NCBI GenBank assembly: GCA_014728075.1
Contig: WJMG01000063.1
Location: 1-38,005 of the forward strand
Direction: 5' to 3'
DNA length: 38,005 bases
DNA from: Candidatus Omnitrophota bacterium
GTDB lineage: Bacteria; Omnitrophota; Gorgyraeia; Tantalellales; Tantalellaceae
In this document: positions 15,193 through 33,132 of the stretch, piece by piece
How the letters are laid out: each line of letters begins with the position of its first letter
Numbering within the stretch: position 1 is the stretch's first letter
Translations under genes and position numbers: made by a program
The notes under the pieces: generated by a model
The model's input: the letters and a program-made list of their open reading frames with translations, nothing else
The model's database searches: none
What the model was told of the DNA's origin: nothing

Positions 15193-15198
15193 CATACA

Positions 15199-16641
15199 GT
15201 GGCATTGATAGACTACGCGATATTCGGCCTGTACATGCTCGGCGTCCTGGGAATAGGATATTATCAGTTCGTCAGGAATAAGAACGCGGAGGATTATTAT
15301 CTGGGAAGCCGCAGGATGTCCGCTTTTCCGGTCGGTTTTTCCGTCGTGGCTACGGATGTAGGCGGGGGTTTTTCCATAGGTCTCGGGGGGCTCGGGTTCG
15401 CCATGGGGCTTTCCGGGAGCTGGCTGCTTTTCACGGGCCTCGTCGGGGCCTGGCTTTCGGCGGTTTTCGTGATACCCAGGATAAAGGCCCTTGACAGAAA
15501 ATTCGGGCTCTATACCTATCCGGACCTTCTGAGGCTCCGTTACGGCCCGGCGGTAGCGCTTTGCGCGGCGGTAATATCCGGACTCGGATACATGGGTTTT
15601 ACGGGCGCCCAGATACTCGCGGGGGCGAAGCTATGTTCCGCTACGGTCATAACGGAACCCGTATTCGGCCTTACGCCTCTCGAGTTCAGCCTTTACCTCA
15701 TAGCCGTTATCACCGTGACTTACACCGTCATCGGCGGCCTCAAGGCCGTAATATACACCGATGTGGCCCAATGGATCATCCTTCTGGGAGGCCTGGTGCT
15801 CGTGGCCGTTCCCGTGGCGTTGGCCAGGGCAGGCGGATGGTCTGCCCTCAGGGCGTCCCTGCCTCCGGAATTTTTCAGCATAACCGCCGTCAAGCCCGTG
15901 ACTTTCGTGAACTGGATGGTGTCTATAATACCGATATGGATCATAGGCATGACGCTTTATCAAAGGATGTACGCGTGCCGGGACGAAAAGACCGCGAAAA
16001 AAGCCTGGTACATCGCCGGGTTCCTGGAATATCCCGTTATGGCGTTTGCCGGCGTGGTCCTGGGGATGTGCGCCCGCGTTTTTTTTCCGGGTGCGGAATC
16101 CGAAACGGGGCTTCCGCTTCTCTTAAGGACATATCTTCCCACGGGTATCGCGGGGCTCGTGATAGCGGCTTATTTCTCTGCTATAATGTCCACGGCCGAC
16201 AGTTGCCTTATGGCTTCCTCGGGCAATGTTCTTAACGACCTTCTGCAGAAAACGGTTCTCCGGCGCGTGAGTGAAAGGGCGGTGATCCGGCTTTCCCAGC
16301 TCGTCACTCTTATCATCGGCATCTCAGCGATATTTATCGCCGTGCGCTTCGAAAAGGTCCTTGAAGCCATATTGTACGCCTACGGTTTCATGGTCTCGGG
16401 GCTCTTTGTCCCAACGCTGGGCGCGTATTTCTGGAAAAGGAGCAGCGGGACCGGAGCTTTGCTGGGGATGATATCCGGAGGGGCCGTCTTTCTGGCGCTT
16501 CAGGCAAAACCCGGCGCTTTTCCTTTTCTGGCGTCCGGACTGCATCCCAGCCTGTTCGGGATAACGGTCTCAGGCCTGGTTTTCGTTATTTTCTCTATCA
16601 TAAAGCCGGACGGTAAAGGAGTTGACTTTTATGCGCAATGA
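15199..16641 (+). CDS. Sodium:solute symporter (SSS/SLC5 family)
   Basis: [40 protein letters not shown]..., ~13 hydrophobic segments, [24 protein letters not shown]. Confidence 0.88.
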
Positions 16642-17485
16642 CAGGATCGAAAAGATAGGCTCCAGTGTCATACAGCACGGTAAGATGAACGACAGGATAT
16701 ATCTGATGAAACTCGATGAAAAGGACCTTCCCGGGATCATCGGCAGGCTTGACTCTCTCGCGGTCTCCCGGGGTTATTCCAAGATATTCGCGAAGGTGCC
16801 TTTTACCAGCTTGCCGTTTTTCCTGGACAACGGATACGCGGAAGAGGCACGGGTCCCGGGATTCTACGGCGGGTCCGTGGACGGTTCTTTCCTGGGTAAA
16901 TATTTTTCCGGAGAGCGGGAAAGGAACGATGACGCGTCCGAGGTGGAGGAAGTCCTGCGCCTTTGCAGGGAAAAGGCACAGGCTCCCGAGCCCGGATACG
17001 GAGGGGAGATTGTGTTCAGAAAGGCCGGTCCTTCGGATATCCCGGACATGGGACGGATATACAGCGAGGTTTTCAAATCGTACCCCTTTCCCATACACGA
17101 CCCCCGGTACCTTCTCGAGACCATGAAGACGCATGTCAACTATTTCGTTGCCTGTGATGGGGAAAAAGTGATAGGCGTTTCGTCCTCCGAGACGGACTCC
17201 GCTTCCGGGAACGCGGAGATGACGGATTTCGCTACGCTTCCCGAATACCGGGGCCGCGGTGTGGCCGGCGGGCTCCTGGCCTTTATGGATGAACGGGCGG
17301 GCGAAGAAGGTTTTTTTACGGCCTATACCATAGCCCGGGCCCTTTCCCGCGGGATGAACATCACTTTCGCCAGGAACGGCTACACTTTCGCGGGGACGCT
17401 CGTTAACAATACCAATATAGCCGGTTCGATAGAGAGTATGAATGTGTGGTATAAGAGGTTAAAGGGTGAAAGGGTTAAAGGGTGA
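16631..17485 (+). CDS. ablB: Putative beta-lysine N-acetyltransferase
   Basis: GNAT fold with [104 protein letters not shown]; adjacent to lysine 2,3-aminomutase. Confidence 0.85.
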
Positions 17486-17508
17486 AAAGGTGAAAGGGTT
17501 AAAAGGCC
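17457..17508 (+). repeat. Degenerate short tandem repeat (GGTTAAA / GGGTGAAA units)
   Basis: GGTTAAAGGGTGAAAGGGTTAAAGGGTGAAAAGGTGAAAGGGTTAAAAGG, covering the last codons of ablB and the 3' flank. Confidence 0.75.
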
Positions 17509-17603
17509 AGGGGTTGATGGCTAAAGGTATATCAGCTCCCGGGTCATGGCTCTAAGGTCACAGGCGCGGGGCTCGCGGCGAAAGGTGAAAGTAAAAAGAT
17601 CTC

Positions 17604-17688
17604 GTCCGCCAAAGATGTTCCGGCGCTCAGACACCCGAACTCGCGTGTGGCTCGTTCGGAAACTCGCGGCGGAACACCTTTAACGGAC
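17604..17688. repeat. Long imperfect palindrome / hairpin element
   Basis: Arms AAAGATGTTCCGGCGC (17611-17626) and GCGGCGGAACACCTTT (17666-17681) pair 14/16; outer GTCCG/CGGAC; inner CCGAAC/GTTCGG. Confidence 0.6.
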
Positions 17689-17762
17689 TCGTAAGAGGCC
17701 TTTCGCCTTAATAAAAAACAACCCGGGGGAGTTATGTCCCCCAAGCCCCCCTAAATTTGTTG

Positions 17763-17790
17763 TTCCGCCGACCCGTTAACGAAGGCGGAA
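17763..17790. repeat. Hairpin TTCCGCC...GGCGGAA in the same intergenic region
   Basis: 7-bp perfect inverted repeat with 14-nt loop. Confidence 0.4.
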
Positions 17791-17890
17791 GTTTATGCGG
17801 ACGACAGTGGTAAAGCGGAGAGTTTGTCGGCATCTGAGGAGCGGGGCTAGAGGCAATTCAGCTTTCAGATGTCAGAGCTAAAATGGGAAT

Positions 17891-17926
17891 AGATTGAGAT
17901 TAAGATTCAGATTGAGATTGAGAAAG
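17891..17926 (+). repeat. AGATTN hexamer tandem repeat
   Basis: AGATTG AGATTA AGATTC AGATTG AGATTG AGAAAG, six consecutive hexamers. Confidence 0.75.
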
Positions 17927-18112
17927 GTCTTTACAAGCCGAGGGCTTGCTAAATCTCAGTCTAGATCTGCGCTTCAGGCTACGGATCGCCGCCTTTGGCA
18001 GGCGCGGGCCCCTGGGGAAATAGACCATGGACAATTGCCCATTCGCGGTACCCGGTACAATAAATCCCATCAAAACTAGAAGATATCCCCTTTTTATTGT
18101 AAAATATCTGGC

Positions 18113-19480
18113 ATGAACATTATCATTACCGGAGCCGGGCATGTGGGGTTCAACCTGGCCGAATACTTTACGGCGCTGGGCCATCAGATAACCGTCATAG
18201 ACCACGATAAGGGACTTTGCGACCATATCAACAGCAAGCTGGATGTTTTCGTGGTGAACGGACCGGGAAGCAGTCCCGCGGTGCTTGCCGAGGCCAATAT
18301 CGACAGGGCAGACATGCTAATAGCCGTGACCTCCAATGACGAGGCGAACCTTCTGGCCTGTAATTTCGCCATGCAGAAAGGCGTGAAGAGGAGGATAGCG
18401 AGGGTCAGGTCTTCCGCCTACCTGGAAGTGGAAGGGGCCGGCGGCATCGACCTCGAATCGACCGGAGTTACCTGTCTTGTGGAGCCGGAAAGGGGCGTGG
18501 TGGACAGGATACTCCAGTATGTTGACCTTCCCGGGGTGCTTGAGACGGCCAATTTCCAGTCTAACCGGATATACCTGAGGGGTTACCGGGTAGAGGAAGG
18601 CATGCCCCTGGCCAATAAGAGCCTTCGTGATATAAGGGCCATGTCCTCGGAAAATCCAATGCTTTTCGTTGTCATAGTCAGGGAGGGCAAGACCATTCCC
18701 CCGGTGGGCGACGAGGTGCTTCTTCCGGGCGACGAGGTCGTGGCCATAATGCCGAAGGAATCCTTCCCTCATTTCAGGGCCCTGATAAACAGCGAGTCGC
18801 TGAAAAGGAGGAAGATAGTTGTCTCCGGAAGCTCCCTGACCGCCGTACATCTGGCGCAGGCGCTTAAACCCATGGCCGATACGGTCGTTCTCGCCGACCC
18901 GGACCTCGAACACGGTACATTCGCGGCCTCGACCCTTGAAGGTGTGGATGTTTTTCACGGTGATACCACCGACCCTTCCGTGCTTGAAGAGATAAACATC
19001 AGGGACGCCGACTGTTTTATAGCAGCCGGGGACCAGGAAGACAATATCATGGCCTGTCTGATCGCCAAGGCCGAGGGCGCGGGTATGGTCATAGCGATAA
19101 GGGACGACGAGCGCTACAGCGGGCTTTTCGATTCCATTGGCCTCGACCATGTGATAAATACCCGCGAAATAGTGCTTAATACGATAATCGAAAGGATACA
19201 GACCGTATCCATCGGGGTTTATCTTAAGCTCAGATCAAGCGATACCGAAGTGGTCAGGTTCAGCGCGGGCCGGAAAAGCCGCGTGGCGGGTAAGACCCTT
19301 ATACAGCTCGAGAAACAGTTCAGGAAAAAGGCCATAGTCGGTTGTCTGGTCCGCAACGGCGAGGTCGTTATACCGGGAGGGGAGACCAGGATAGAGGCTG
19401 ACGACGAGGCTATCATTTTCTGCGGAAAAGATTTCCTTCCCAGGGTCAAGAAACTGTTCAATCCTCCGGAGAAAGAATGA
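18113..19480 (+). CDS. trkA: Trk system potassium uptake protein TrkA (two RCK_N/RCK_C pairs)
   Basis: MNIIITGAGHVGFNLAEYFTALGHQITVIDHD..., second Rossmann unit KIVVSGSSLTAVHLAQAL, GDTTDPSVLEEINIRDADCFIAAGDQEDNIMACLIAKAEGA. Confidence 0.9.
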   Translation: MNIIITGAGHVGFNLAEYFTALGHQITVIDHDKGLCDHINSKLDVFVVNGPGSSPAVLAEANIDRADMLIAVTSNDEANLLACNFAMQKGVKRRIARVRSSAYLEVEGAGGIDLESTGVTCLVEPERGVVDRILQYVDLPGVLETANFQSNRIYLRGYRVEEGMPLANKSLRDIRAMSSENPMLFVVIVREGKTIPPVGDEVLLPGDEVVAIMPKESFPHFRALINSESLKRRKIVVSGSSLTAVHLAQALKPMADTVVLADPDLEHGTFAASTLEGVDVFHGDTTDPSVLEEINIRDADCFIAAGDQEDNIMACLIAKAEGAGMVIAIRDDERYSGLFDSIGLDHVINTREIVLNTIIERIQTVSIGVYLKLRSSDTEVVRFSAGRKSRVAGKTLIQLEKQFRKKAIVGCLVRNGEVVIPGGETRIEADDEAIIFCGKDFLPRVKKLFNPPEKE

Positions 19481-21081
19481 ACCCGAGATTTATCACTTAC
19501 TCAGTGGGTAAGCTTCTTGAGATCCTCGCCCTGGTCCTCTTTATCCCGGCGGGTATAGCTTTCTATAATCTCCTTCCCGAAGGGTATCCGGCGATGCTGC
19601 TGGATCACAGGCTTTCGGGTTTCATCATCGCCATCCTTTCGTCTTTTTTCTGCGGCATGATACTGAAGCTGGCGGGGGACAGGGAGATTTCCGGCAACGG
19701 TATAAGGGAAGGCTTCGCCATAGTCGCTTTCGGATGGATAGTGCTCACGCTCTTCGGCGCCATACCTTTCATAGTGTATTTTCTGGGAAAAGCCGCGGCC
19801 GTGGATGTGCATGTTTTCCTGCGGGCTTTTACCGATTCATATTTCGAGATAATGAGCGGGTTCACCACTACCGGGGCCACTATTTTCGAGGATGTGGAAA
19901 GCCTGCCCCGGGGCCTTCTTTTCTGGAGAAGCCTGACCCACTGGCTGGGCGGCATGGGTATAGTGACGCTCGCCCTGGCGATACTTCCAGCTTTCGGTAT
20001 AGCCAGCTACCAGATGTTCAGGGGAGAGGTGCCTGGTCCCACGGCCGAGAGGCTTCGCCCCAGGCTGGCTCAGACCGCGATAATACTCTGGGGGGTTTAC
20101 GCCCTCCTTACACTGGTAGAGGCGATACTTCTCAGGCTGGGGGGTATGAGCGTTTTCGACGCTCTCTGCCACGCTTTCGGGACGATGGCCACAGGAGGGT
20201 TCTCCACCAGGAACGCCTCAATAGGCGCGTATAACAGCAGTTTCATAGACTGGGTCGTGATAGTTTTCATGTTCTTCGCGGGCATGAACTTTATTATACA
20301 TTACCGCGTCTTTTTCGGAAGGAAGCTGGACCTTCTTAAAAGCAACAGGGAGTTCCATTTTTACGCCGGCGTGCTCGTCGTCGCCGTCCTTCTCGCCGTC
20401 ATAGCGCTAGGGACCCAGGGTATAGTCTCCCCGGAGGAGGCAGGCGCCAGTTTCCGGCCCGAGCCTCTTTCCGCAAGCGCCCTGACGGAGAAGATCTCGG
20501 TCGAAAAGGAAAAGGTCTCCTCTTTTTACGGCATTCTCCGGCACGCCGCGTTCCAGGTGGTGTCTATCACCACAACTACCGGTTACGCTACGGCGGATTC
20601 CGATATCTGGCCCAATTTCGTCCGGTTCATGCTCGTGGTCCTCATGTTCTTCGGCGGGTGCGCCGGATCGACCGGGGGCGGCATAAAGATGATCCGGGTC
20701 ATGGTATTCCTCAAGACGGCGCTCAGGGAGATAAAGACCATCATACAGCCCAGGATAATAGCGCCTATCAAGATAGCCCGGAAAGCGGTTGACGATAAGC
20801 AGGTGATGAACATACTCGGTTTCATCGCGCTTTTTATGGGATGTTTTGTCGTATTGTCCGCGGCGATGAGCTTCATAATACCCGATTTTACGACGGCGGT
20901 GGTTTCCGTTGTCGCCACTATGTGTAATATCGGACCCGGGCTTTCAGGCGTAGGCGCCACGGAGAACTATGCCTGGATACCCCTTTCCGGAAAATGGGTC
21001 CTTACCCTGTGCATGCTTCTGGGCAGGCTCGAGATATATACCGTGATAATAGCCCTTTCCCCGATCTCCTGGAGAAAATGA
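19477..21081 (+). CDS. trkH: Trk system potassium uptake protein TrkH
   Basis: DSYFEIMSGFTTTGATIFEDVESLPRGLLFWRSLTHWLGGMGIVTLALAILP, FGTMATGGFSTRNASI, GGCAGSTGGGIKMIRV, ATMCNIGPGLSGVG selectivity-filter repeats. Confidence 0.93.
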   Translation: MNPRFITYSVGKLLEILALVLFIPAGIAFYNLLPEGYPAMLLDHRLSGFIIAILSSFFCGMILKLAGDREISGNGIREGFAIVAFGWIVLTLFGAIPFIVYFLGKAAAVDVHVFLRAFTDSYFEIMSGFTTTGATIFEDVESLPRGLLFWRSLTHWLGGMGIVTLALAILPAFGIASYQMFRGEVPGPTAERLRPRLAQTAIILWGVYALLTLVEAILLRLGGMSVFDALCHAFGTMATGGFSTRNASIGAYNSSFIDWVVIVFMFFAGMNFIIHYRVFFGRKLDLLKSNREFHFYAGVLVVAVLLAVIALGTQGIVSPEEAGASFRPEPLSASALTEKISVEKEKVSSFYGILRHAAFQVVSITTTTGYATADSDIWPNFVRFMLVVLMFFGGCAGSTGGGIKMIRVMVFLKTALREIKTIIQPRIIAPIKIARKAVDDKQVMNILGFIALFMGCFVVLSAAMSFIIPDFTTAVVSVVATMCNIGPGLSGVGATENYAWIPLSGKWVLTLCMLLGRLEIYTVIIALSPISWRK

Positions 21082-21360: not shown

Positions 21361-24300
21361 ATGAATAGCCGGTGGTTTAAAAAGAACAGGCTTATAAGAC
21401 GCGGTGTTTGTGTTCTTACGCTGCTGCTTTTTACCGCGGGTACAGTGGTACCCGTTAATGGCTTCAGCCAGGCCATGAGCTTCGCCCCGGCAGCTTCTTT
21501 GTCCTTAGCCGCTTCAGACATAACACTTCCCGAAGGGCTGGGTGAGATAAAAATGGCCCGGGACGGGACCAGCGGGAAGATAGTTATACATATACAGGAC
21601 GCGCATTGTAACAAGTTCGCCCAGAGAAAGATCCTATCCATTTTAAGGCATATCAGGAACCATTACGGAATAGGGCTTTTAAATCTGGAGGGGGGTGTGC
21701 GCGGCTACGATACCGGGAGTTTTACGGAAATAAAAGACCGTGAAATAAGGATGAGGGTCGCCGGGTATTTCATGGATAAAGGAGAGCTGAGCGCCGCCGA
21801 AATTTACGCGATAGAGCGGCCCGGCGATATAAGTCTGTGGGGAGTGGAAGATAAAGAGCTTTATCTGAAAAACCTGGATGTGTTCCGTTCCTCCCTGAAA
21901 GAAAAAAGCGAAATGGACGAATATCTACGCGCCGTACGGCAGGATCTGGAAGGCCTCAAAAAAGAAAGATTCAATAAAGAACTTCTCGAGATGGATTCGC
22001 TATATTCCCGATACAGGGACCGGAAGATCGATCTTGAAGAATATTTCCGTTTCGTCGCCGAAAAGGCCGTTGAAAAAAATATAGATTTCGGGAAGGAAGA
22101 GAATTTCTCCGGATTGCTCAAGCTTTTGGAGGATGAAAAGGAGATCGATTTCCGAAAAGCAAATAAAGAAAGGGACCTTTTGCTGGGTAAACTCGGGAAA
22201 ACGCTTTCTTCCGACGGTTCGAAACGCCTTCTCGAATACACTCTTCTTTTCAGGAATAAGAACATAGGGGCGGAAACCTATTACGCGTATCTCAAAGATA
22301 CGGCCGCCAGGATGGGGGTCAAGAGGGAGGAGTATCCCTCTTTCTTTTCTTACGCCGAGTACATACGGGATTTCGGGAAAATAGACAAGGTGTCCGCTAT
22401 TCACGAGGTCGAAACCGTAGAGGAAAAGATAAGAAGCGTTCTTTACGAGAACGGATCCCAGGAAGAGCTTGATACACTGTCCCGCCGCCTTTTTCTGCTT
22501 GAGGATATGTTCTCTTTCAAGCTCACCAGAAGAGATCACGCCAGGTATCTGGATCTTGAGCACGGACTGGACCCGGGCAGGATCTCTTCTTTTTTAAAGA
22601 AGGAAGGGGTTGAATACGATGCTGTTACCATGTCGGAGGAAAGCATACGCAGGGTCAACGCGTACAGGTCCGAAGTTTCCGCTTTCTTCAGGTTTTCATT
22701 TTTGCGGGATGACAGGTTCCTCGAGAATATCCGTTTCGACAGCATGAGTAACGGCCAGGAAGCGGCGCTGATAATAACCGGGGGATTCCATTCCGAGAAC
22801 CTTGCCGCTCTGTTCCGGGCGTCGGGTCACGGTTTCGTTTCTATAATGCCTTCTTTTTCGTGTGAGGAAGGGTACGAAAGCCCTTATTTCAGTCTTCTCG
22901 CGGGGGAAAAAGACGCTTTCGCCGCGGCCGTGGCCCCTTATTTGGCGGAAGCCAGCGCCCTGCAGAAAGCCAGCAGACTGTGCCCGGCCCTTTCCGGGGA
23001 AGTGTATACTCCCGATGAAACGGCTCTTTTCCGGGCCGAAAAAAAATTCGTGGAAAGAGCTGCCGTAGGATCCGTTGAAGTGGAACTGCTGGACAGACCG
23101 GGCGGACATACACTTTTTTCCGCCGGAAGCGGAGAACGGACGCAGATCACCGTAAACGACCTGCTGCTTCCTCTCGGATATCCCGTAAAGGGTTCTGAAG
23201 AGAGGATACGGGAAGAGGAACATCACGGCGCGAAGAAAAGCTTTTTTTCCGGTATCTTCGAAAAGGCGGTAAAGATTTCATCCTACATCAACACGGTGCC
23301 TTACGCTATCCGTAAGATATTTCTTTTACCGGTAAGGGAAGAGTTGATCTACAGAGGAGGGCCGTTACTGGTCCTTTATTCGGCGGCCCTTCTTGTGCCG
23401 GGAGGGATGGGGGCTCAGGGGGCGCTTTTAGCCGGTGTCGCGCTGCAGGCCATATCAGGCGCGTATTTCATCAAAAAGCACGCGATAGAAAGAGAAAGCG
23501 TGTACAAGTGGATGCCGGCGCCGGCTCTTGTGAGCTTTATAGCCACCGGTATTCTGACCCCTCTTTTTTTATGGAACCCCGTGGTGCTTCTCGCTGGATC
23601 TATAGCCGTTCATTCTACCGTGAACCTTATTGTTCTTATGGCTAACCGGATGATGGGCGAGGAAGCCGTTGGATACGCCGTAATACCGGAAAGTCCTGGA
23701 GCCGGGGCGGTTACCCCCGGCGCCCATCGCGGGGATCCGGATGAGGAGGTCTTTATAGACATTTTGAGCGAGGATAGCACGCTGAACGCTCTGCCCGAAG
23801 AGACCCTGCTGAAGACGCTTGAGACTTCAAACCCTTCAGCCCTGTCGAATCTGGGCCTTACGGAAAACGCCGCGCTCAGGATCGAAACGGCGAAGCTGGT
23901 CTATTTACAAATGAAAGGGTACGGTATAGAAGCGGAGATAAATGAGTTCGTAAGGGAGCGTATTGCCGGAGGAAAACAGAAAGAAGTTTTCGAGCTCATC
24001 GGTGAACTCGGCGCGGCCGGGGGAAAAATAGGCGCTGCCGCCTACGATGTTGCCGGGAGTATCCTGGGGGTCATGAGGGTAAAATACAAGCTGGAAGGCC
24101 AAGAGTTCGATGAATACATAAAACCGTATCTTTATACCGGAAGCGAAAAATACGATCTTATCCTGAAGGAGAAAGTAGACGAGGCCGCGGAAGGGAAGGT
24201 AAAACGGTTAAGGGACCTTGACCTGGATACCAGAAGGAAGATACTGGAAAGGCAGGTCGTCGAGAGGTTCAACAGGCTTTCCGCTTTTGACCAGGCCAGA

Positions 24301-27300
24301 TTGTTCTACAGGAACTGGGATTACAGGGAGACCGAGATAGCGGAGATCGCGAAGGTCGATGCGCTGGGTCCATCCAGGGGCGAAGAGGATGTGAGAAAAA
24401 AAGCGGTTATAGTTCTTCTGGTCCTGAACGCGGCCAGCCGCGCCGGTTACTCGGAAGAGCAGGATCTTTACGAATACCTCAAGGATTATTATTTCGGGAG
24501 TCCGGACGAAAGGCACGATTACGGGCTTACAGGCATGAACCTCCCCAGAGGGGAAGACTTTGACAGGTTTTTGAATTTTGTGAACGACAGGTATTTTGTC
24601 GAAGATGTTGCCCGTGAACAGGTGGATATAGGGGAAATGACCCTGCCGAGGGACAGGCTGATGGATTCAGTTTCAAGGATCCGTCTTGATTTCGGGATAT
24701 CTTCCAGGGATATAAGGCGGGATATCGAGGGTATGCCCGAATATCAGCTTACAGTGACAGGAGATCTTTTCTCGAGCCAAGAAATGGAGAGCGTACGATC
24801 TTTGTCCGGATATGAGAGCGCGGAATTCATCAAAGAGCTAGAAATGGCGATGAGCTCGCCCGTAACATCTTCCTCCTTTTTCGACGAGGAGAACAATATT
24901 CTTACCATAAGCCTCTACCCCGAAGGGATAAACGCTCTCAGGGCGCAGTACGGTCTTCCGGCGAGATCTTTTGAGGTAACCGTGCCCGATATAGATACAA
25001 CCGGAATGACCGAGGAACAGTTTGAAATGATCCGGACACTGATAGAAGAAGGCGCCAGAAGACGCATGCGGTCGAGCACGGAGCTTTCGGAGGCCACGAA
25101 ACAAATGTTCCTGGATTTTTCCAATGACGCATTTTGTTTACAATACGCCCGGAGAGAGGAAGGTGGCGTGACCGAAGTTTCCATGATGCCGAGTGAGCTC
25201 ATTTTATCCAAAGGAGAAAAAAGGAGCTACGAAGAGATAAGCTACATACCCGAGAGATGGCGCCCCAGCGAAAGGTTCCCGGCGCGAGATGAGAACCGGC
25301 TTCTGGAAGAGGTGGCGGAGAGCCTGGGCAAGACCGCCGAAGAGATAAGGAAAGAGATCGACGACATGATGCTCAAAAGGCATTACCAGATGTACAGGGC
25401 GAACGGCTTCGCGGAAAGGGACGATCCCCAGGCGCGGATAATTTACGGAATATTCGAGGACCTGAAGAAAGCTTATAACGAAACGGCCCGGATACGCGGG
25501 TATCCGGAATATTCGGGCAAACTTTTTATAGTTGATACTCCGGAAGTCAACGCTTTCGCGGACCCGGCCAGGGGTGATATCTTCCTTTTCCAGGGGTTGG
25601 TGAGAGGCATGGCAGACTACTTCAGCCCCGAGAACGCCAGCGGTATAGGAGGGAGCCATTTTTCGAAGGAACACATCGCTGCCGTACTCGCGCACGAAAT
25701 GGCCCATATCATGCAGGGAACATCTCCCCACGGTATACCTTTCGAGCAGCTGGTCAAGGAAGACGCGAAAAGGACGGAAATACTTGATATAAAACGGAAC
25801 CAGGAATATGACGCCGACGAGATGTCAATGCTGCTTATGGACGCCGCGGGGTATAATCCACGCGGGATCATAGAGCTGATAGACCTTCTCACGAGCATAA
25901 CTCCCAAAAGCACTCTCGAGACCACGGCCGAAGATCACCCGCATCCCAAGGAAAGAAAAAAGAACCTGCAGGACCTGTCCATGGACAAAAGCCTGGTAAC
26001 CCGGAATTTCGAAAAACCTTTTTCCGGGCTCGAACGGGAAGATTTCAGCAGGATGTACAGCAGGCACTCTCTTCATTTAACCCCTTATATAAGCTCGAGG
26101 GAAGAGCTTCTTGACGCGATAAGGAACTCCGGGCGTTTTGAGGAACTTGTGGGTTTGCTTCGAATGGCGCAAGCGACAGCAAGATTTCCCAAGGTAAAGG
26201 CCGCCGCTAAAGAGGGCTTCGCGCGATCTTGTTTTGCGAGATACATTTTCGGTAAGAACATCATTCAGGCCGTAAGAGCCTTGAGTAATTCCTATACCGG
26301 GGAAGACGGGACGGTTACCGGCGATCTGGTGGGCAACAGGCAGGCAGGAGCTTACATCGCCAATGTGTCGTCTTCCGGGGACGGACTTTCCCCGAGAGAC
26401 AGGTATTCGCTTGGCTGGCAACTTGAAAGAAATCTCGAAAGGAGCGCCAGGGAGGTCATAGCCGAGATCAACGGTGTAGCGTCCGACATAAGCCTTTCGG
26501 ATATATCTCTGGAAGAAAAGAAGGACGCGCTCTCTAAACTTGACAGGATCAAAAAATTCTTCATAGAGACGGTATCTTCCCTGAACGAGGAGGATTACGA
26601 AATTTTCTTGCGGGCCTCCCCCGGAGAACCGGGAACGGACGCCGCCGAGATCGCCGATGCTATCAGGACATCTGAGGAAACGGAACTTTCCGTGCTGAGG
26701 GAGGTGCCGGTGGCGGTCTTCGGCTCTTTCGGGAAGGACAGGCTCGATGAGAAAAAAGAGATCGAGCTGCCGACGGGTGAAAAGATACAGGCGGTGATGG
26801 AAAGAGAGGACCCCGGGATATATGTGAAAGATGTGCGGAGATGGCCTCTTGACGGGCCGCGCGAAAGAGAAAGCTTGTTCGAGGTCCTTCTGCTCAGCTG
26901 GATAAACAGTCATTGGGTCAATGGCGTAACGACTTTTGAGCGCGACGGCCTCGATACGGAATTGTACAGGGAGATCAGGGCAAAGCTGGGGGAGCCCGGG
27001 TTCATCAGGTTCCCGTCCGGAGTGGGAACGGAAGAGTTCGAAGGCGCGATGTTCAGGGAAAAACTCGCGCTGTACCTGGCGGAATTCGAATGGAATACCC
27101 CAAAGGGGTCGGAACTTGCCCGTTTCGCTTCGGAAGTTATGCCTTTCGAGGAAACCTGCTTTCTGCCGCGACTTTTTTCCGGGGAATTCGGAGGCGTAGG
27201 AAATTCCAGGAGAGTGTTCGAAGTAAGGAGCGCATACAGTAAAAGGGCTTCCGCTGTGCAGGAACAAAGGGCGGATTATGAGCGCGAAGGTGACTTCTCG

Positions 27301-30300
27301 ACCCCCGGCGACATAATTTCCCGGAAATTGTCCGCCGTGAAGACCGGCTCGGAGGTCCTTTCGGTCATCAGGGGCGAGACCGGTATCTATTCGCCTTCTT
27401 TCAGGGCAAAGATCTTAAGACAGCTGGCGCAGCAAAGCAGCCATTCGTTCTTTGTCGGCGGTTCCCTCGACGCCGTGGAGCTGTTCGCGCTGTTCAAGCA
27501 GATAATACCTTACGCCGACGCCGCGGAAATAATGCTGGAACTTTTATCGTACGATGTGTTCAAACAGTCTTACGCCCGGAATGCCGGCCTTGAGACCTAC
27601 AGGGCGGCCGCGGCGGTCATAGAGGAGATAATGGATAAAAGAAAACCCGGTGACAGGACAGTTCCCGGCGGCGCGATGAGCGTTTATATAAGATCTAAAA
27701 TAAAAGAAAGGAAGGCCGGAGGAAGATCGATAGATGCGGATTTCGTTTACCGTACGCTTGAACGCCTCAGCAGGCATTCGAACATTTCCCTGGCCGAAGG
27801 GCCCGAAGGCGGATTTGTCTTTACGGAGAACCCGGAAGATGAGGATATCCTTGCCGGAAAAGTGCACCTCCGGGAGCAGAAAGTCGGATCCCCCGATATG
27901 CCGGTCTGTCTTTTTAATAGATACATTGAAAAAGACGAGCAGGAATTCTTCAGAAAGATCTTCGATCTCGATACGGAACAGCTTCAGGAGATAGCTCTTA
28001 ACCAGGAACGGGTCGAATCGTTATCCCGTGAAACGACCGCCATGCAGACAGGCCGGCTTAAAGACACCGGCCTGACCAGGAACAGCGACTTCAAGCGTAT
28101 GCTGGACGGTATTATAATATTGAAACTGCTGGACGAGGCCAGGGAAGGAGCGGGCCTTAAACCCAAGCACACCATTAATTCACGCGATTTTGAAGAAGTG
28201 CTCAGTATGGATATAAGGGTTGTTTCTTCCGAAGATGAGCGGGCCGGGATTGAAAAGATATCTCAAACGACGCACATAATTCTTTTCAGTGACATGGCAA
28301 AAGAGTTCAATTCCCTGATCGAAAAGGAGATAGAAGGCTCCGGACAATATCCCGCCGGCGGGGATAAGGAGCAATTTGACGCCCGGACGCGGCTGGCGAG
28401 GGAGTTCATGCGGAAATTACGAAGAGGATTCGTGAAGCTCAAAGAGCGGGCTTATTCATCCTCGGATGAGTTCTTTACCCGATCATCGGGGGATACCTGG
28501 GGCTTTCGCAGCGCCAGGCGGGAAATAAGCCTCGCCGAAAAGGTAATGCTGGAGATATTTCCCGAATATTGCGATCTTATGGTGGATTACCAGATCCCCG
28601 GCCCGAAAAATATGGACTCTTTTACGAGAAAACACGAAGAAGGCCCCGTCGATTATAAAAAAGCGTTCCTGGACAGGATAGATATTGAAGGCCCTAAAGC
28701 CCGGCTTTTCAAGAAATACGATGAGGAGAAACTGGGCCTGGTCTCTCTGGATGAGTCTTTGCCGCAAAAACTCGATAAGCTGGAAGCTTTTCTGCCGGAG
28801 GCCTCGCTTTACAGGGACATATATATACACTCCATAGAGAAGACCCTGCCCCAGATCAGGCAGATACATCCGTTCCTGGAAGGGGAATCCCTTGACGACG
28901 ATATGCTCACGCTGATCGGTAAAGGGATAGTGAATCCTTTCGAGGAGTGGGAGAGGCTGAGGAATGCGGAATTCCATATAGAGCCCGATGTTTTCGAGAA
29001 CATGCACAGGCCCTTTTACAGGCGTGCCGTGCTGATGACAGCTGATCCTCAAAGGCAGATCAGGTACGGGTTGACGGCGCTGAAGATATATAAGTCTGTC
29101 TATCCAGATTCGACTTTCAGAGAAAGGTTCGAGGCGATCATGGAGTTCATGCCGAACCCTTCTAAGGTCCGGGACGACGAGATCGACGCGCTTCTTGAGG
29201 AGTACGACATACCTTTCACGGGAGATGATGTGCCCGAAAGGGAAGAGATCACTTTAGAGTATCTCAGCCGAGAGGTGCTGCACCAGTACAGCGATTACCA
29301 CAGGTATACCCTCGACAAGGAAATGAACAATATGGACATGATGATACAGTCGGTAAGGGCCATGCTTTCCTCGGCGGGGCGCGGACAGAAAAAAGATTTC
29401 GTTCTCTGGCTGCTGGATCCGCGGAGCTACCCTAAACCCGAGGTCTTGAAAAAGGACGAGGAACAGGGCCGGCTCTTCGACTCGATGCCGTCCGATATAA
29501 AGTTCCTTCCCCAGAAACTGAAAGACGCGGTGCTTAAGGATATTTTCCTTGGGGAGGGAGGCCTGCTCAATCCGAGGGAAGGGGTGGCTGAAGACAAGGC
29601 CGCGATGAACGCTTTCGCGGAGGCTTTGTTCAATAAGTACTTTAAGATAGACCCGAGCGGGAAAAAAGGTTTCAAGGCGGAGACGCACGGCGTATTGAGA
29701 TCGGTCTTCAATTCGGTCATAGAACACTATAATCCGGCCCGGAAGACAGAGATAGTGCTGGCGCTTCTGGCCATGGAAGGCAAGCTCGAAGAACTCGAAC
29801 CGGGAGACAGGCTGGTAAGCATGCTGCAGACATTGGGCGCCGTCGGCATCAAGGTCGGGCAATTCCTCTCTGAGAACGAAGGGATGATAACCGATTCCTC
29901 CATGCGAAGGAAACTGGGATATTTAAAGGACAGCGCCGAAGGTTTCGGCAAACTGGGAGTGCTGGAGACCCTGAGGGCCGAAGGCGTTGACCTCTCCAGG
30001 CTCAGGATCGGAAGGAGGCTCAAAGCGGCTTCCATGAAGCAGGTGCACGAAGCGTGGTACCTGAACGACCGGGGCGAGTGGGAACGGGTAGCGATAAAAG
30101 TCCTGCGGCCCGCCATAGCGAGGACCATAGAAGAGGACCTGTATGTTCTCGAAAAGGTCCTGGAGGATGTCCGGCGGGATTTCCCCGAATACGATGTAGG
30201 CAATATGGCCGGGACCGTAAGGTCCTGGATAGACGAAGAGAGGGATTTTTCACTGGAGATAAGGAACGCGGAAAATATAGCGGACATCGTAAGAGAATAC

Positions 30301-33132
30301 GAAACCGGCGGCCGTTCCGGGGGAGACCTTCTTTCTTTCGGTGTCCCGGGCCAGGTCCTTGTGGCGAAGGAAAAAGGCGCGTCAGTGATGATAGAGGAAT
30401 TCGTCAACGGTGTCTCCGCTACCGAACTTTTCGCGGAACCCTGGTATCTCAGGGAATCTTACGCGGAGGAAGAGGGTGACGATGGCCGTATTACCGCCCG
30501 GGAACTTTCGAAAAGGGGTTTCGGGCCCGATGAGATAAAAGAGATACTTTCTTTTACAAGTTACTCGAAGCGTAAGGCCATAAAGGCGCTTTTGAGAAAG
30601 CAGCTCCTGTACCAGATATTCGAAAAAGGCGTTTTTCACGCGGACCTTCACGGAGGAAATGTCATCTTTGACGCCGGTACGGCGCACATAATTGACCACG
30701 GTCTTATAGGCCGGCTGAACGAGGGCCAGATGGGAGCCGCCAAGGCGCTTATAAGGAACATTCTTTTGAAGGATGTAAAGGGTACGGTAAGGGCGATCAA
30801 TTCAATGATAATAGCGGGAGGCGGACTTCCGCTGGACCTTTCAAAAAAAGGCGAGGATGGATCTCCGGAGATCGAAACCGAGATAGCGGAGGTATTCAAA
30901 AAAGGCACCCTTAAACAGCGCCTTAACAACATTTCCACCAAAATACTTAAATACAGTGAGGGGGAAGCGTCCCGGGATGTGGGCACCTTTCTCAAGGCTT
31001 TTACCCAGGCCATATGGCTTTTTCCCACGGGCATCAACGGAGGGTTTTCTTCCCTGAAAGATATAGCTGAAGCCACTGAAATGCGCGGGGCGGAATTCCG
31101 CGATGTCCTGAGGAGGAATGTCCCGGAGATCGTGTTTAACAGCGCGAAGGGCTCACTGAGGTCGGGGTTAGTATTCGTCCGCAATATTTGCTTCTGGATC
31201 TACCGGAAAACGGTCCCGAGCAGGTTTATAAGGGAAATGTTGGAGAAGTTTGAGAGAATGAGAGCCGGTATGCGGTTAAGAAGATTAGCCGGAGAACAGG
31301 CGGAGAACATAATACGGTCGTTAACGCGTTTTTCCGGGTCGGAAGGCTCCGGTAAAGAAGAATACCGCAGCGACGGGCCCGGAAGACCCGTTTCTCTTGA
31401 AATAGAACCCGGAGCCGTGGTCTTGAGAAAGAAAGGTCTTCCCCCCGGGGTGGAATTGGTGGCGGAGACCTGGCCGCTGGAAGATGTCGGAGGAGGGCTG
31501 GAAATCTCCTGGAAGGACGAGGAGGACGGAAAAGTCACGGAAACATATTTCCGCTACATCGAGCTCTTGGGGCTTTCAGGAAGTTCCAGAGAGTTTGGAC
31601 TTCCTCCTTTTCTTAAGGAAAACTCGGAAGAGAGACCCCTTCTCAAAGAACTTTACGCCGCGGAGTTCGGAGAACCCGCGGAACGGCCCGAGGAGGATCT
31701 CATAGCCCGGGAACTGACCGCCCGGTATATCCTTTCGTCGGATTCGTCGACCCCGGGAGAAAGGTCTTTTGCCCGTAGGCTTCTCCCCCGGAATTTACGC
31801 CTGGCGGAAATGGCGCGCGAACTGACGGATGTTTATCTGATGCACCTTGATTTCGGCAAGAGAAGTGTCGGAGGGGATGTGTCGAATTCCAGGCTGGCCC
31901 TTACGCTGTTCGAAGGCCACGAATCGATACGGCCGGAATTTCATCGCGGGTATCGGAAAGGAAAGCTGAGGTTGATCGTTCAGGAACAACCCCGTGAGCC
32001 GGGAAATATCGTTTCCAGAGAAGTAATGGACATGGGTTTGCCTCCTGATTTTGCCGTGGACAGGAATGTCAGGGCCGTCCTGAGCGGTATGAAGCTTAAA
32101 GCCCCGGGAATATACGAAACGGGAAGATGTTATTATACGGGTCCGGAGGGTAACAAGAGGCAGATAATCGTGACGGCCATGCTTGTGGGATACGGTGAGG
32201 GGGGAAGGGTCAGGGTGAAGATAGCGGACCAGTTCTCTTCCGAAGAAGTCGATTTTGTCTTGAGAGGCGATGAGTTCGAAGAATATATCCGGAAGGGCCG
32301 GATCGAAAGGTTTTCATTGAAGAAATGGGAGATCAGCGAACCCGTACGCGGGTCTCCCGGCGAGCCGGAGGATAGTGATGGGGGATTTGCCGCAGGGGCC
32401 GGGCTGCCGGCGGAAGGGGAGGACCGGGAAGAGGCGAAAGAGCCTTTAACCCCCGCGGGCCGAAGAGAGCTTGATGTCTTGAACGCCCTGTCCGCCGTGG
32501 CAGGCAAGAATATACCCATCAGAAACATCGTGATCGTAGCCGTTGACGACGAGAAGGCCCTCGAGGAAATGGAGGAAGAGCTTAACGGGTGGATAAATTC
32601 CGCAGGGTTCGGGTCGGATCAGCCGGGCAGCAGAAGCGCGCGGAGCAGGAGGGAGATACTGCTAGTTCCCGGCAGGCGGGAGTTCGAGAGCGGGAAAGCG
32701 TTCCTTGACAGGCTCGAGAAGGAAATAGACAGGGCCGTGGCGAACCTCCCGGAAGAGGCGGCGAACAGGGACAGGATAGTCACGGTCTACGCTTCCGCCC
32801 AAATATCGGAGCCCCTGAAAAGATATTCGGGCCGTTACGGGAAAACCGTGAGCGTCATAAAGGACGAGTCCGAGGACAAGCCCGAAATGGACATAATGGC
32901 GAGGTACGCCATAGCGAGGCATGTTTTCGCCAGCACCATAAGCCCTGCTCTAAGGATATCTTCCCTCCGGGCCATAAACGAACTTCTGGAAAGGATAACC
33001 GAGGACGGGGCTTCCATAAGCGATATAGAGGACCTTTTCACGGATTTTGTATTGAAGATAGCGCCCATCGACTGGGGAGAAGAGATAACCGCGTGGCAGG
33101 AAGCCCAGGAAGCCGTTGCCAGGTCACTTTGA
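21361..33132 (+). CDS. Giant multidomain protein (3923 aa): signal peptide + TraB/TIKI/ChaN-like domain + CPBP intramembrane protease + M48-like zinc protease + UbiB/ADCK-like kinase + unassigned regions
   Basis: Single uninterrupted ORF of 11,772 nt; motifs IHIQDAH/LLNLEGG/ITGGFH, EELIYR/HSTVN, HEMAH/EYDAD, KVGQ/HADLHGGN/IDHG. Confidence 0.9.
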   Translation: MNSRWFKKNRLIRRGVCVLTLLLFTAGTVVPVNGFSQAMSFAPAASLSLAASDITLPEGLGEIKMARDGTSGKIVIHIQDAHCNKFAQRKILSILRHIRNHYGIGLLNLEGGVRGYDTGSFTEIKDREIRMRVAGYFMDKGELSAAEIYAIERPGDISLWGVEDKELYLKNLDVFRSSLKEKSEMDEYLRAVRQDLEGLKKERFNKELLEMDSLYSRYRDRKIDLEEYFRFVAEKAVEKNIDFGKEENFSGLLKLLEDEKEIDFRKANKERDLLLGKLGKTLSSDGSKRLLEYTLLFRNKNIGAETYYAYLKDTAARMGVKREEYPSFFSYAEYIRDFGKIDKVSAIHEVETVEEKIRSVLYENGSQEELDTLSRRLFLLEDMFSFKLTRRDHARYLDLEHGLDPGRISSFLKKEGVEYDAVTMSEESIRRVNAYRSEVSAFFRFSFLRDDRFLENIRFDSMSNGQEAALIITGGFHSENLAALFRASGHGFVSIMPSFSCEEGYESPYFSLLAGEKDAFAAAVAPYLAEASALQKASRLCPALSGEVYTPDETALFRAEKKFVERAAVGSVEVELLDRPGGHTLFSAGSGERTQITVNDLLLPLGYPVKGSEERIREEEHHGAKKSFFSGIFEKAVKISSYINTVPYAIRKIFLLPVREELIYRGGPLLVLYSAALLVPGGMGAQGALLAGVALQAISGAYFIKKHAIERESVYKWMPAPALVSFIATGILTPLFLWNPVVLLAGSIAVHSTVNLIVLMANRMMGEEAVGYAVIPESPGAGAVTPGAHRGDPDEEVFIDILSEDSTLNALPEETLLKTLETSNPSALSNLGLTENAALRIETAKLVYLQMKGYGIEAEINEFVRERIAGGKQKEVFELIGELGAAGGKIGAAAYDVAGSILGVMRVKYKLEGQEFDEYIKPYLYTGSEKYDLILKEKVDEAAEGKVKRLRDLDLDTRRKILERQVVERFNRLSAFDQARLFYRNWDYRETEIAEIAKVDALGPSRGEEDVRKKAVIVLLVLNAASRAGYSEEQDLYEYLKDYYFGSPDERHDYGLTGMNLPRGEDFDRFLNFVNDRYFVEDVAREQVDIGEMTLPRDRLMDSVSRIRLDFGISSRDIRRDIEGMPEYQLTVTGDLFSSQEMESVRSLSGYESAEFIKELEMAMSSPVTSSSFFDEENNILTISLYPEGINALRAQYGLPARSFEVTVPDIDTTGMTEEQFEMIRTLIEEGARRRMRSSTELSEATKQMFLDFSNDAFCLQYARREEGGVTEVSMMPSELILSKGEKRSYEEISYIPERWRPSERFPARDENRLLEEVAESLGKTAEEIRKEIDDMMLKRHYQMYRANGFAERDDPQARIIYGIFEDLKKAYNETARIRGYPEYSGKLFIVDTPEVNAFADPARGDIFLFQGLVRGMADYFSPENASGIGGSHFSKEHIAAVLAHEMAHIMQGTSPHGIPFEQLVKEDAKRTEILDIKRNQEYDADEMSMLLMDAAGYNPRGIIELIDLLTSITPKSTLETTAEDHPHPKERKKNLQDLSMDKSLVTRNFEKPFSGLEREDFSRMYSRHSLHLTPYISSREELLDAIRNSGRFEELVGLLRMAQATARFPKVKAAAKEGFARSCFARYIFGKNIIQAVRALSNSYTGEDGTVTGDLVGNRQAGAYIANVSSSGDGLSPRDRYSLGWQLERNLERSAREVIAEINGVASDISLSDISLEEKKDALSKLDRIKKFFIETVSSLNEEDYEIFLRASPGEPGTDAAEIADAIRTSEETELSVLREVPVAVFGSFGKDRLDEKKEIELPTGEKIQAVMEREDPGIYVKDVRRWPLDGPRERESLFEVLLLSWINSHWVNGVTTFERDGLDTELYREIRAKLGEPGFIRFPSGVGTEEFEGAMFREKLALYLAEFEWNTPKGSELARFASEVMPFEETCFLPRLFSGEFGGVGNSRRVFEVRSAYSKRASAVQEQRADYEREGDFSTPGDIISRKLSAVKTGSEVLSVIRGETGIYSPSFRAKILRQLAQQSSHSFFVGGSLDAVELFALFKQIIPYADAAEIMLELLSYDVFKQSYARNAGLETYRAAAAVIEEIMDKRKPGDRTVPGGAMSVYIRSKIKERKAGGRSIDADFVYRTLERLSRHSNISLAEGPEGGFVFTENPEDEDILAGKVHLREQKVGSPDMPVCLFNRYIEKDEQEFFRKIFDLDTEQLQEIALNQERVESLSRETTAMQTGRLKDTGLTRNSDFKRMLDGIIILKLLDEAREGAGLKPKHTINSRDFEEVLSMDIRVVSSEDERAGIEKISQTTHIILFSDMAKEFNSLIEKEIEGSGQYPAGGDKEQFDARTRLAREFMRKLRRGFVKLKERAYSSSDEFFTRSSGDTWGFRSARREISLAEKVMLEIFPEYCDLMVDYQIPGPKNMDSFTRKHEEGPVDYKKAFLDRIDIEGPKARLFKKYDEEKLGLVSLDESLPQKLDKLEAFLPEASLYRDIYIHSIEKTLPQIRQIHPFLEGESLDDDMLTLIGKGIVNPFEEWERLRNAEFHIEPDVFENMHRPFYRRAVLMTADPQRQIRYGLTALKIYKSVYPDSTFRERFEAIMEFMPNPSKVRDDEIDALLEEYDIPFTGDDVPEREEITLEYLSREVLHQYSDYHRYTLDKEMNNMDMMIQSVRAMLSSAGRGQKKDFVLWLLDPRSYPKPEVLKKDEEQGRLFDSMPSDIKFLPQKLKDAVLKDIFLGEGGLLNPREGVAEDKAAMNAFAEALFNKYFKIDPSGKKGFKAETHGVLRSVFNSVIEHYNPARKTEIVLALLAMEGKLEELEPGDRLVSMLQTLGAVGIKVGQFLSENEGMITDSSMRRKLGYLKDSAEGFGKLGVLETLRAEGVDLSRLRIGRRLKAASMKQVHEAWYLNDRGEWERVAIKVLRPAIARTIEEDLYVLEKVLEDVRRDFPEYDVGNMAGTVRSWIDEERDFSLEIRNAENIADIVREYETGGRSGGDLLSFGVPGQVLVAKEKGASVMIEEFVNGVSATELFAEPWYLRESYAEEEGDDGRITARELSKRGFGPDEIKEILSFTSYSKRKAIKALLRKQLLYQIFEKGVFHADLHGGNVIFDAGTAHIIDHGLIGRLNEGQMGAAKALIRNILLKDVKGTVRAINSMIIAGGGLPLDLSKKGEDGSPEIETEIAEVFKKGTLKQRLNNISTKILKYSEGEASRDVGTFLKAFTQAIWLFPTGINGGFSSLKDIAEATEMRGAEFRDVLRRNVPEIVFNSAKGSLRSGLVFVRNICFWIYRKTVPSRFIREMLEKFERMRAGMRLRRLAGEQAENIIRSLTRFSGSEGSGKEEYRSDGPGRPVSLEIEPGAVVLRKKGLPPGVELVAETWPLEDVGGGLEISWKDEEDGKVTETYFRYIELLGLSGSSREFGLPPFLKENSEERPLLKELYAAEFGEPAERPEEDLIARELTARYILSSDSSTPGERSFARRLLPRNLRLAEMARELTDVYLMHLDFGKRSVGGDVSNSRLALTLFEGHESIRPEFHRGYRKGKLRLIVQEQPREPGNIVSREVMDMGLPPDFAVDRNVRAVLSGMKLKAPGIYETGRCYYTGPEGNKRQIIVTAMLVGYGEGGRVRVKIADQFSSEEVDFVLRGDEFEEYIRKGRIERFSLKKWEISEPVRGSPGEPEDSDGGFAAGAGLPAEGEDREEAKEPLTPAGRRELDVLNALSAVAGKNIPIRNIVIVAVDDEKALEEMEEELNGWINSAGFGSDQPGSRSARSRREILLVPGRREFESGKAFLDRLEKEIDRAVANLPEEAANRDRIVTVYASAQISEPLKRYSGRYGKTVSVIKDESEDKPEMDIMARYAIARHVFASTISPALRISSLRAINELLERITEDGASISDIEDLFTDFVLKIAPIDWGEEITAWQEAQEAVARSL
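21580..22815 (+). other. Giant protein domain 1: TraB/TIKI/ChaN-like domain (tentative)
   Basis: IVIHIQDAH at aa 74-82, GLLNLEGG, C-terminal ITGGFHSENL with His at aa 477, resembling the GxxH and Glu layout of that superfamily. Confidence 0.45.
23272..23655 (+). other. Giant protein domain 2: CPBP (CAAX-type) intramembrane metalloprotease
   Basis: EELIYR (EExxxR) at aa 660-665, HSTVN (HxxxN) at aa 751-755, about four hydrophobic segments between and around. Confidence 0.7.
25474..25905 (+). other. Giant protein domain 3: M48-like zinc metallopeptidase
   Basis: LFIVDTPEVNAFADPARGDIFLFQGLV, VLAHEMAHIMQG (HExxH at aa 1445-1449), EYDADEMSMLLMDAAGYNPRG (third-ligand region at aa 1482). Confidence 0.82.
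29821..31000 (+). other. Giant protein domain 4: UbiB/ADCK (ABC1) atypical kinase-like domain
   Basis: LGAVGIKVGQFLSE (KxGQ at aa 2831), AASMKQVHEA...VAIKVLRP, VMIEEFVNG, GVFHADLHGGNVIFD (His aa 3093), IIDHGLIG (Asp aa 3112). Confidence 0.85.

What the first reader, a model, noticed from the sequence alone, without database searches (positions are those of the whole stretch)
21361..33132. 3923-aa single-ORF protein fusing a TraB/TIKI-like domain, CPBP intramembrane protease, M48-like protease and UbiB-type kinase
The 11.8-kb ORF is uninterrupted. It carries an N-terminal signal sequence and recognisable catalytic signatures of several enzyme families: EELIYR/HSTVN (CPBP), HEMAH/EYDAD (M48-like), KVGQ/HADLHGGN/IDHG (UbiB/ADCK). 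Giant genes are known in Omnitrophota-like bacteria, but I know of no described system with two protease types plus an atypical kinase on one chain. Possible roles, all inference: a membrane-associated processing and signalling machine, a lipid or quinone-linked envelope quality-control factor, or a large surface or predation effector.
Basis: partly seen in the sequence, partly recalled or inferred. Interest (0 to 1): 0.9.

Follow-up and report, generated by a model that had tools for sequence, protein, structure and literature searches.

The report
Exported giant protease-kinase protein family
An uncultured Omnitrophota bacterium encodes a 3,923-residue protein with an export signal that carries protease units and a UbiB-type kinase on one chain, and its 1,700-residue protease-to-kinase core recurs across the phylum, so it is a real protein family whose function is still unknown.

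Summary
The ORF (21361-33132, 3923 aa) is real. M48 (E 3e-16) and UbiB/ABC1 kinase (E 2e-27) domains are significant, with full catalytic signatures. CPBP falls below the Pfam cut-off in this protein, but its three motifs are kept in most homologues. The first ~520 residues weakly match the Tiki/ChaN superfamily. The genome is Candidatus Omnitrophota. The combination is not a one-off fusion. M48, a ~1000-aa linker, an undescribed ~200-aa 'mid' domain and the UbiB kinase lie in that order in 28 single ORFs. A 29th is cut before its kinase, 3 loci split the order over adjacent ORFs, 4 are cut by contig ends, and none contradicts it. 'Mid' occurs in 26 of 384 phylum genomes. The linker is itself homologous between families, and one fully supported branch separates these kinases from stand-alone UbiB. 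The Tiki-like head begins at least 11 long ORFs in this genome (up to ~10,500 aa). Many head proteins end in a common C-terminal domain, and their tails are rich in HExxH motifs. Nearly all N-termini look like signal peptides, so a kinase outside the cytoplasm is the puzzle. Best reading: an exported, modular protease-kinase enzyme of the envelope or of cell-cell interaction. Architecture is shown; location, activity and target are inferred.

The parts
21361..33132 (+). the whole ORF, 3923 aa, with stop codon
   Evidence: coding statistics; a GGAG-like sequence lies upstream of the ATG (sequence printed)
21361..21468 (+). signal-peptide-like N-terminus, residues 1-36 (KKNRLIRR then hydrophobic stretch)
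   Evidence: hydropathy; same kind of N-terminus in 96 of 102 related proteins. No dedicated signal-peptide predictor was run
21520..22932 (+). Tiki/ChaN-superfamily-like head, residues 54-524
   Evidence: own profile; alignment of 31 relatives with invariant D80 H82 E110 E147 E163 R449 G474 G475 H477; ChaN/Tiki model hits; model pLDDT 80
23305..23652 (+). CPBP (Rce1-like) intramembrane protease-like segment, residues 649-764; EExxxR 660, FxxxH 703, HxxxN 751
   Evidence: homologues in L099, L100, L203, L076, L108, L130
25498..25971 (+). M48 metallopeptidase, residues 1380-1537; HEMAH 1445-1449, EYDAD 1482-1486, DHPHPKER near the end
   Evidence: Pfam E 3e-16; zinc-ligand motif kept in 14 of 14 aligned core proteins
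25972..29061 (+). core linker, residues 1538-2567, no known domain, homologous to linkers of other core proteins
   Evidence: blastp E 8e-35 to L281 and 6e-29 to L282; length 833-1309 in 29 ORFs
29062..29718 (+). 'mid' domain, residues 2568-2786, undescribed
   Evidence: profile from 15 sequences; 26 of 384 phylum genomes
29803..30801 (+). UbiB/ABC1K-type kinase, residues 2815-3147; KVGQ 2831, LKAAS 2887-2891 (Ala-rich loop), HADLHGGN 3093, IDHG 3111
   Evidence: Pfam E 2e-27, NCBIfam UbiB model E 9e-30 but far below the equivalog cut-off, motif alignment, tree
32503..33129 (+). C-terminal domain 'Ct', residues 3715-3923, ending in WQEAQEAVARSL
   Evidence: shared with the extreme C-terminus of many head proteins; model pLDDT 80, no significant PDB match

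Best explanation
The gene encodes an exported modular enzyme of Omnitrophota. Shown by sequence: a signal-peptide-like N-terminus, a Tiki/ChaN-like head, a CPBP-like membrane segment, and a conserved ~1,700-residue core in which a complete M48 metallopeptidase is joined through a homologous ~1,000-residue linker and a 'mid' domain to a UbiB-type kinase with its catalytic and UbiB-specific residues, closed by a C-terminal domain shared with other head proteins. Inferred: the chain is exported by Sec and works in the envelope, on the surface, or inside a neighbouring cell. The head and end domain would handle trafficking or anchoring. The M48 unit would be the effector protease, and the nucleotide-binding UbiB unit would gate or direct it. 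Of the possible sites, I rate action on a host, prey or neighbour cell slightly ahead of processing of the bacterium's own envelope.
For: Order M48-linker-mid-kinase in 28 single ORFs with spacing 833-1309 aa and no exception; linker homologous; catalytic motifs kept in M48 and kinase; correlated distances of M48, mid and kinase; giant kinases and stand-alone UbiB on either side of one branch with SH-aLRT 100; signal-like N-termini in 96 of 102, also in core proteins without the head; head shared by many long ORFs and Ct at the extreme C-terminus; HExxH excess in tails. Host-dependent traits of the phylum: PMC10066038.
Against: A kinase outside the cytoplasm lacks an obvious source of ATP. No secretion system or partner gene lies next to it among the neighbours tested. 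No ATP/ADP translocase hit in this genome, so no support for an intracellular energy-parasite setting. Conservation of the core across families is more like a standing enzyme than a fast-changing effector. Export rests on a hydropathy test only. No activity is known.
Confidence: 0.5

Rival explanations
1. Own-envelope lipid or protein quality control: it works like the plastoglobule set, in which UbiB-type ABC1K kinases and an M48 protease (PGM48) occur on the same lipid particle. The UbiB unit would act on isoprenoid lipids and the proteases would clear or mature envelope proteins.
For: CPBP, M48 and UbiB families are all tied to membranes or prenyl lipids (general knowledge of the families); ABC1K1, ABC1K3 and PGM48 are plastoglobule core proteins (PMC12587418); one UbiA-family gene is present in the genome; the core is conserved across families.
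Against: CPBP is absent from all other core proteins found; most of the core proteins have no further strongly hydrophobic segments; the core is present in only 26 of 384 phylum genomes, few for a housekeeping role; UbiA-family genes are too general to show a quinone pathway.
Confidence: 0.27
2. Polyprotein: the chain is cut by its own protease units into separate enzymes, and no single giant machine exists.
For: Several protease-type domains lie on one chain. The M48 and kinase parts lie on two adjacent ORFs in three loci, L072, L200 and L283.
Against: No cleavage site is known. The M48-mid-kinase spacing is kept and the linker is homologous, as expected for one working unit. The split loci may be frameshifts in draft assemblies.
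Confidence: 0.13
3. Assembly or annotation artefact: unrelated genes joined, or a non-coding open frame.
For: The genome is a draft of 93 contigs.
Against: Same order in many independent assemblies, uniform coding statistics, significant domains with catalytic residues.
Confidence: 0.02

Closest known systems
UbiB/ABC1K/ADCK (COQ8) atypical kinase family (PF03109; TIGR01982)
   Same: Pfam E 2e-27; KxGQ, Ala-rich loop, ExD and catalytic residues (features as in PMC4718504)
   Different: Embedded in a signal-bearing giant chain behind an M48 unit and the mid domain; on the other side of a fully supported branch from 12 stand-alone UbiB proteins of the same class; far below the UbiB equivalog cut-off
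M48 peptidases (PF01435; HtpX, BepA, Oma1, Ste24, PGM48)
   Same: HExxH, ExxAD-type third ligand and a following HP motif
   Different: Part of a giant chain; no hydrophobic segment next to it; no NCBIfam M48 equivalog reached its cut-off
CPBP / Rce1-like intramembrane proteases (PF02517)
   Same: Three motifs in a hydrophobic segment
   Different: Below the Pfam cut-off in this protein
Tiki/TraB/ChaN/EreA superfamily
   Same: Weak but recurrent ChaN/Tiki profile hits; D/H, E and GGxH-type invariant residues
   Different: Long helical insertion in the model; no significant fold match
Giant ORFs of Omnitrophota (Seymour et al. 2023, PMC10066038)
   Same: Same phylum, long exported-looking proteins with few annotated domains
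   Different: 11.8 kb, below the 20-kb limit used there; enzymatic core rather than the adhesion domains reported
Plastoglobule ABC1K kinases and PGM48 protease (PMC12587418)
   Same: A UbiB-type kinase and an M48 protease in one place
   Different: Separate proteins in plastids; no sequence test of relation was made here; analogy only

Membership tests
UbiB/ABC1K kinase family | ABC1 domain over the curated Pfam cut-off | tested here: met
   96.6 bits against 22.9
UbiB/ABC1K kinase family | KxGQ motif, Ala-rich loop and ExD motif specific to UbiB (PMC4718504) | tested here: met
   KVGQ, LKAAS and ERD in this protein; KxGQ-type motif in 32 of 35 giant kinases
UbiB/ABC1K kinase family | kinase or ATPase activity; role in isoprenoid lipid metabolism | not testable with these tools
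   catalytic residues present only
UbiB equivalog (ubiquinone biosynthesis) | NCBIfam equivalog cut-off 487.55 bits | tested here: not met
   103.6 bits
M48 peptidases | HExxH plus downstream Glu ligand, Pfam cut-off | tested here: met
   60 bits against 20.3; motif in 14 of 14 aligned
CPBP / Rce1-like | EExxxR, FxxxH and HxxxN motifs in a multi-helix membrane segment | tested here: met
CPBP / Rce1-like | curated Pfam cut-off | tested here: not met
   15.3 bits against 22.4; best homologue 22.3
Tiki/TraB/ChaN superfamily | significant profile match | tested here: inconclusive
   no hit for this protein, 4 of 31 relatives weakly; 18 of 20 loci found with the ChaN model carry the head
Tiki/TraB/ChaN superfamily | fold | tested here: inconclusive
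   no PDB match at E below 0.9; Ere-type structures among chance-level hits
Omnitrophota giant ORFs (PMC10066038) | length above 20 kb | tested here: not met
   11.8 kb; head frames reach ~10,500 aa in this genome, and a frame with 'mid' reaches 12,257 aa elsewhere
known anti-phage defence proteins | PADLOC model match | tested here: not met

The most novel reading that the evidence does not exclude
A phylum-wide family of exported protease-kinase machines in which a UbiB-type nucleotide-binding unit works outside the producing cell's cytoplasm, coupled to an M48 protease over a fixed distance and mounted on a shared trafficking frame (Tiki-like head and terminal domain) that also carries other enzyme cargo, and used on host, prey or neighbour cells.
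Probability: 0.35. Interest if true: 0.88.

Novelty: new variant of a known kind. Interest (0 to 1): 0.76.

Why it matters
Giant Omnitrophota ORFs have been described as having few annotated domains and being hard to interpret (PMC10066038). Here are conserved units to work with: a head, an end domain and a protease-kinase core with intact active-site motifs. I know of no exported UbiB-type kinase and found none in the papers searched; either reading, nucleotide use outside the cytoplasm or delivery into another cell, would be new. The domains are of ordinary size and can be expressed alone in laboratory strains.

Tried and rejected
Sequence search of the whole protein against solved structures: nothing. 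Fold searches with the head and Ct models: no significant match. Profile of the head against PDB sequences: nothing meaningful. PADLOC: no match, so no support for a known anti-phage defence protein. NCBIfam on the head: nothing consistent. Plasmid records: only the kinase part matches, to AarF/UbiB proteins. Intracellular energy parasitism: no ATP/ADP translocase hit in the own genome or its family. Erythromycin-esterase model over 145 phylum genomes: one true esterase and two weak hits, one of which lies on a head. Short repeat in the linker: the P..[ST]..RD motif is above chance (11 against 0.6) but occurs once or twice per protein, so no repeat array was shown. Rfam and tRNA scans of the window: nothing.

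Full report
Observation. The ORF at 21361-33132 (+) is 3923 codons long and uninterrupted. Codon-position GC is uniform along it and codon usage fits the neighbouring genes only in this frame. The window lies on contig C53 of a 2.10-Mb draft genome, 94% complete. The named related loci kept by the wide scan are all Candidatus Omnitrophota.

Domains. Sliced Pfam searches give M48 at E 3e-16 and ABC1 at E 2e-27; the CPBP slice reaches only E 0.14, and a tighter slice 0.026. CPBP is nevertheless likely: EExxxR, FxxxH and HxxxN are present and kept in most full-length homologues in other head proteins, one of which scores 22.3 bits against a cut-off of 22.4. The first ~520 residues match no Pfam family in this protein. 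An alignment of 31 relatives has invariant Asp, His, Glu and Arg residues and a terminal GGxH. Four of the 31 weakly match ChaN/Tiki. A search of 145 phylum genomes with the ChaN model at E up to 0.01 listed 21 matches; loci were given for 20 of them, and 18 of those carry this head by its own profile. The AlphaFold model is fair (pLDDT 80) but has no significant PDB match; Ere-type structures appear among the chance-level hits. I therefore call it Tiki/ChaN-superfamily-like, not a proven member.

The head is not special to this gene. The own genome has 12 head matches, eleven in frames of 1,494 to 10,567 aa and one in a 219-aa frame at a contig end. In 59 of 79 related genomes a query that begins with the head found a match; most, but not all, of those matches are to the head. 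Of 48 complete head ORFs counted, 28 end in the Ct domain, and where Ct was found it ends within one residue of the stop. Three of the 48 are second fetches of the same gene (L116, L136, L092), so the count of different genes is 45, with 26 ending in Ct. The last residues of Ct follow a pattern of the type IDxxEIxxWxxAQxxVxxSL.

The core. Profiles made from this protein were run over the fetched ORFs. In 28 ORFs M48, 'mid' and the UbiB-type kinase lie in this order in one frame. One more (L293) has M48 and mid but the stretch ends before the kinase. In three loci (L072, L200, L283) M48 is on the ORF just upstream of the mid-kinase ORF. In four (L066, L197, L291, L292) the frame is cut by the start of the contig or stretch and too short to show M48. 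None contradicts the order. The M48-to-mid distance is 833-1309 residues, median 1014. The linker is homologous too: E 8e-35 and 6e-29 to proteins from other families of the phylum. Distance matrices of M48, mid and kinase correlate, with no permutation of 5000 as high (relatedness of the genomes itself contributes to this). The mid profile finds 26 of 384 phylum genomes, in frames of 1,328 to 12,257 aa apart from one 168-aa frame. Some loci were fetched because they had a kinase or a mid domain, so the count says how constant the order is, not how common the core is; one search gives that.

The kinase. The UbiB hallmarks described in PMC4718504 are present: KxGQ, Ala-rich loop, ExD and the catalytic residues. 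Over 35 giant kinases the D.H..N catalytic loop is found in all and the KxGQ-type motif in 32 by simple patterns. A tree of 35 giant and 12 stand-alone kinases puts the two kinds on either side of one branch with SH-aLRT 100; it is unrooted, so a single origin is compatible but not proven. In 246 genomes of the class the 12 strongest ABC1 hits are in frames of ordinary UbiB size (555-597 aa), and most of the weaker ones that pass the cut-off lie in longer frames.

Export. A hydrophobic stretch after basic residues marks the N-terminus of 96 of 102 examined proteins. Core proteins without the Tiki-like head have it too. This was a hydropathy test, not a signal-peptide predictor, and the core protein L065 fails it. 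If it holds, M48 and the kinase of core proteins without further hydrophobic segments lie outside the cytoplasm. That is hard to square with ATP use in the periplasm, and it is the central open point. In the window protein the CPBP segment adds membrane passes, so the side on which its core lies is not settled.

Other cargo. HExxH occurs 58 times in 85 tails of head proteins, against 3.0 on average (at most 11) in shuffles and 3 in reversed sequences; other ORFs of the same loci have 21 in a similar number of residues. Some tails carry enzymes usually found in the cytosol: PPDK, Ser/Thr kinase, GGDEF, phosphoglucomutase, radical SAM.

Surroundings. The neighbouring genes tested are ordinary: lysine 2,3-aminomutase, a sodium symporter, a GNAT acetyltransferase, TrkA and TrkH upstream; an aminotransferase, DUF503, FMN-binding and PTS EIIA/CBS proteins downstream. 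They give no partner or secretion system. ORFs before 13879 were not searched.

Mechanism. Best reading: an exported protease-kinase enzyme on a shared trafficking frame, acting on a neighbour cell or on the own envelope, with the UbiB unit controlling the protease. For action on other cells speak export, several paralogues in one genome (six mid loci in G003), cytosol-type cargo in other head proteins, and the host-dependent traits reported for the phylum (PMC10066038). Against it speak the lack of a linked secretion system, the absence of an ATP/ADP translocase hit in this genome and the conservation of the core across families. The plastoglobule pairing of ABC1K kinases with the PGM48 protease (PMC12587418) is an analogy only.

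Novelty. The parts belong or come close to known families; the conserved exported combination was not found in the papers searched, which do not include preprints or most subscription journals. The core was searched only in Omnitrophota and plasmid records, so its absence elsewhere is not shown.

Noticed in passing
window 13879-21081: Lysine 2,3-aminomutase, sodium symporter, GNAT acetyltransferase, TrkA and TrkH in a row: perhaps an osmoadaptation island (acetyl-beta-lysine and potassium uptake); the function is inferred from the families.
   Followed up: no
G000: C76, C1, C6, C68, C32, C30, C3, C67, C17: Twelve matches to the same Tiki-like head in this one genome, counting the window, in frames up to ~10,500 aa: a family of long proteins with one kind of N-terminus.
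   Followed up: partly
tails of head proteins, e.g. L163, L079, L103, L159: Enzymes usually found in the cytosol (Ser/Thr kinase, GGDEF, PPDK, phosphoglucomutase, radical SAM) behind signal-like N-termini; unexplained.
   Followed up: no
85 tails of head proteins: Strong excess of HExxH motifs, 58 against 3.0 in shuffles, suggesting many metallopeptidase units.
   Followed up: partly
L195, L198, L276: Core proteins without the Tiki-like head begin with another domain after the signal-like segment; L195 and L198 share a stretch containing IPEDDLWVNLSPYEKDR.
   Followed up: no
L128:10086-10844, L087, L092: Ct domain on the ORF just downstream of a head ORF rather than on the same chain; natural split or draft-assembly frameshift.
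   Followed up: no
window 23248-23700: Weak ICMT (isoprenylcysteine methyltransferase) match, E 0.0046, below cut-off, over the CPBP segment.
   Followed up: no
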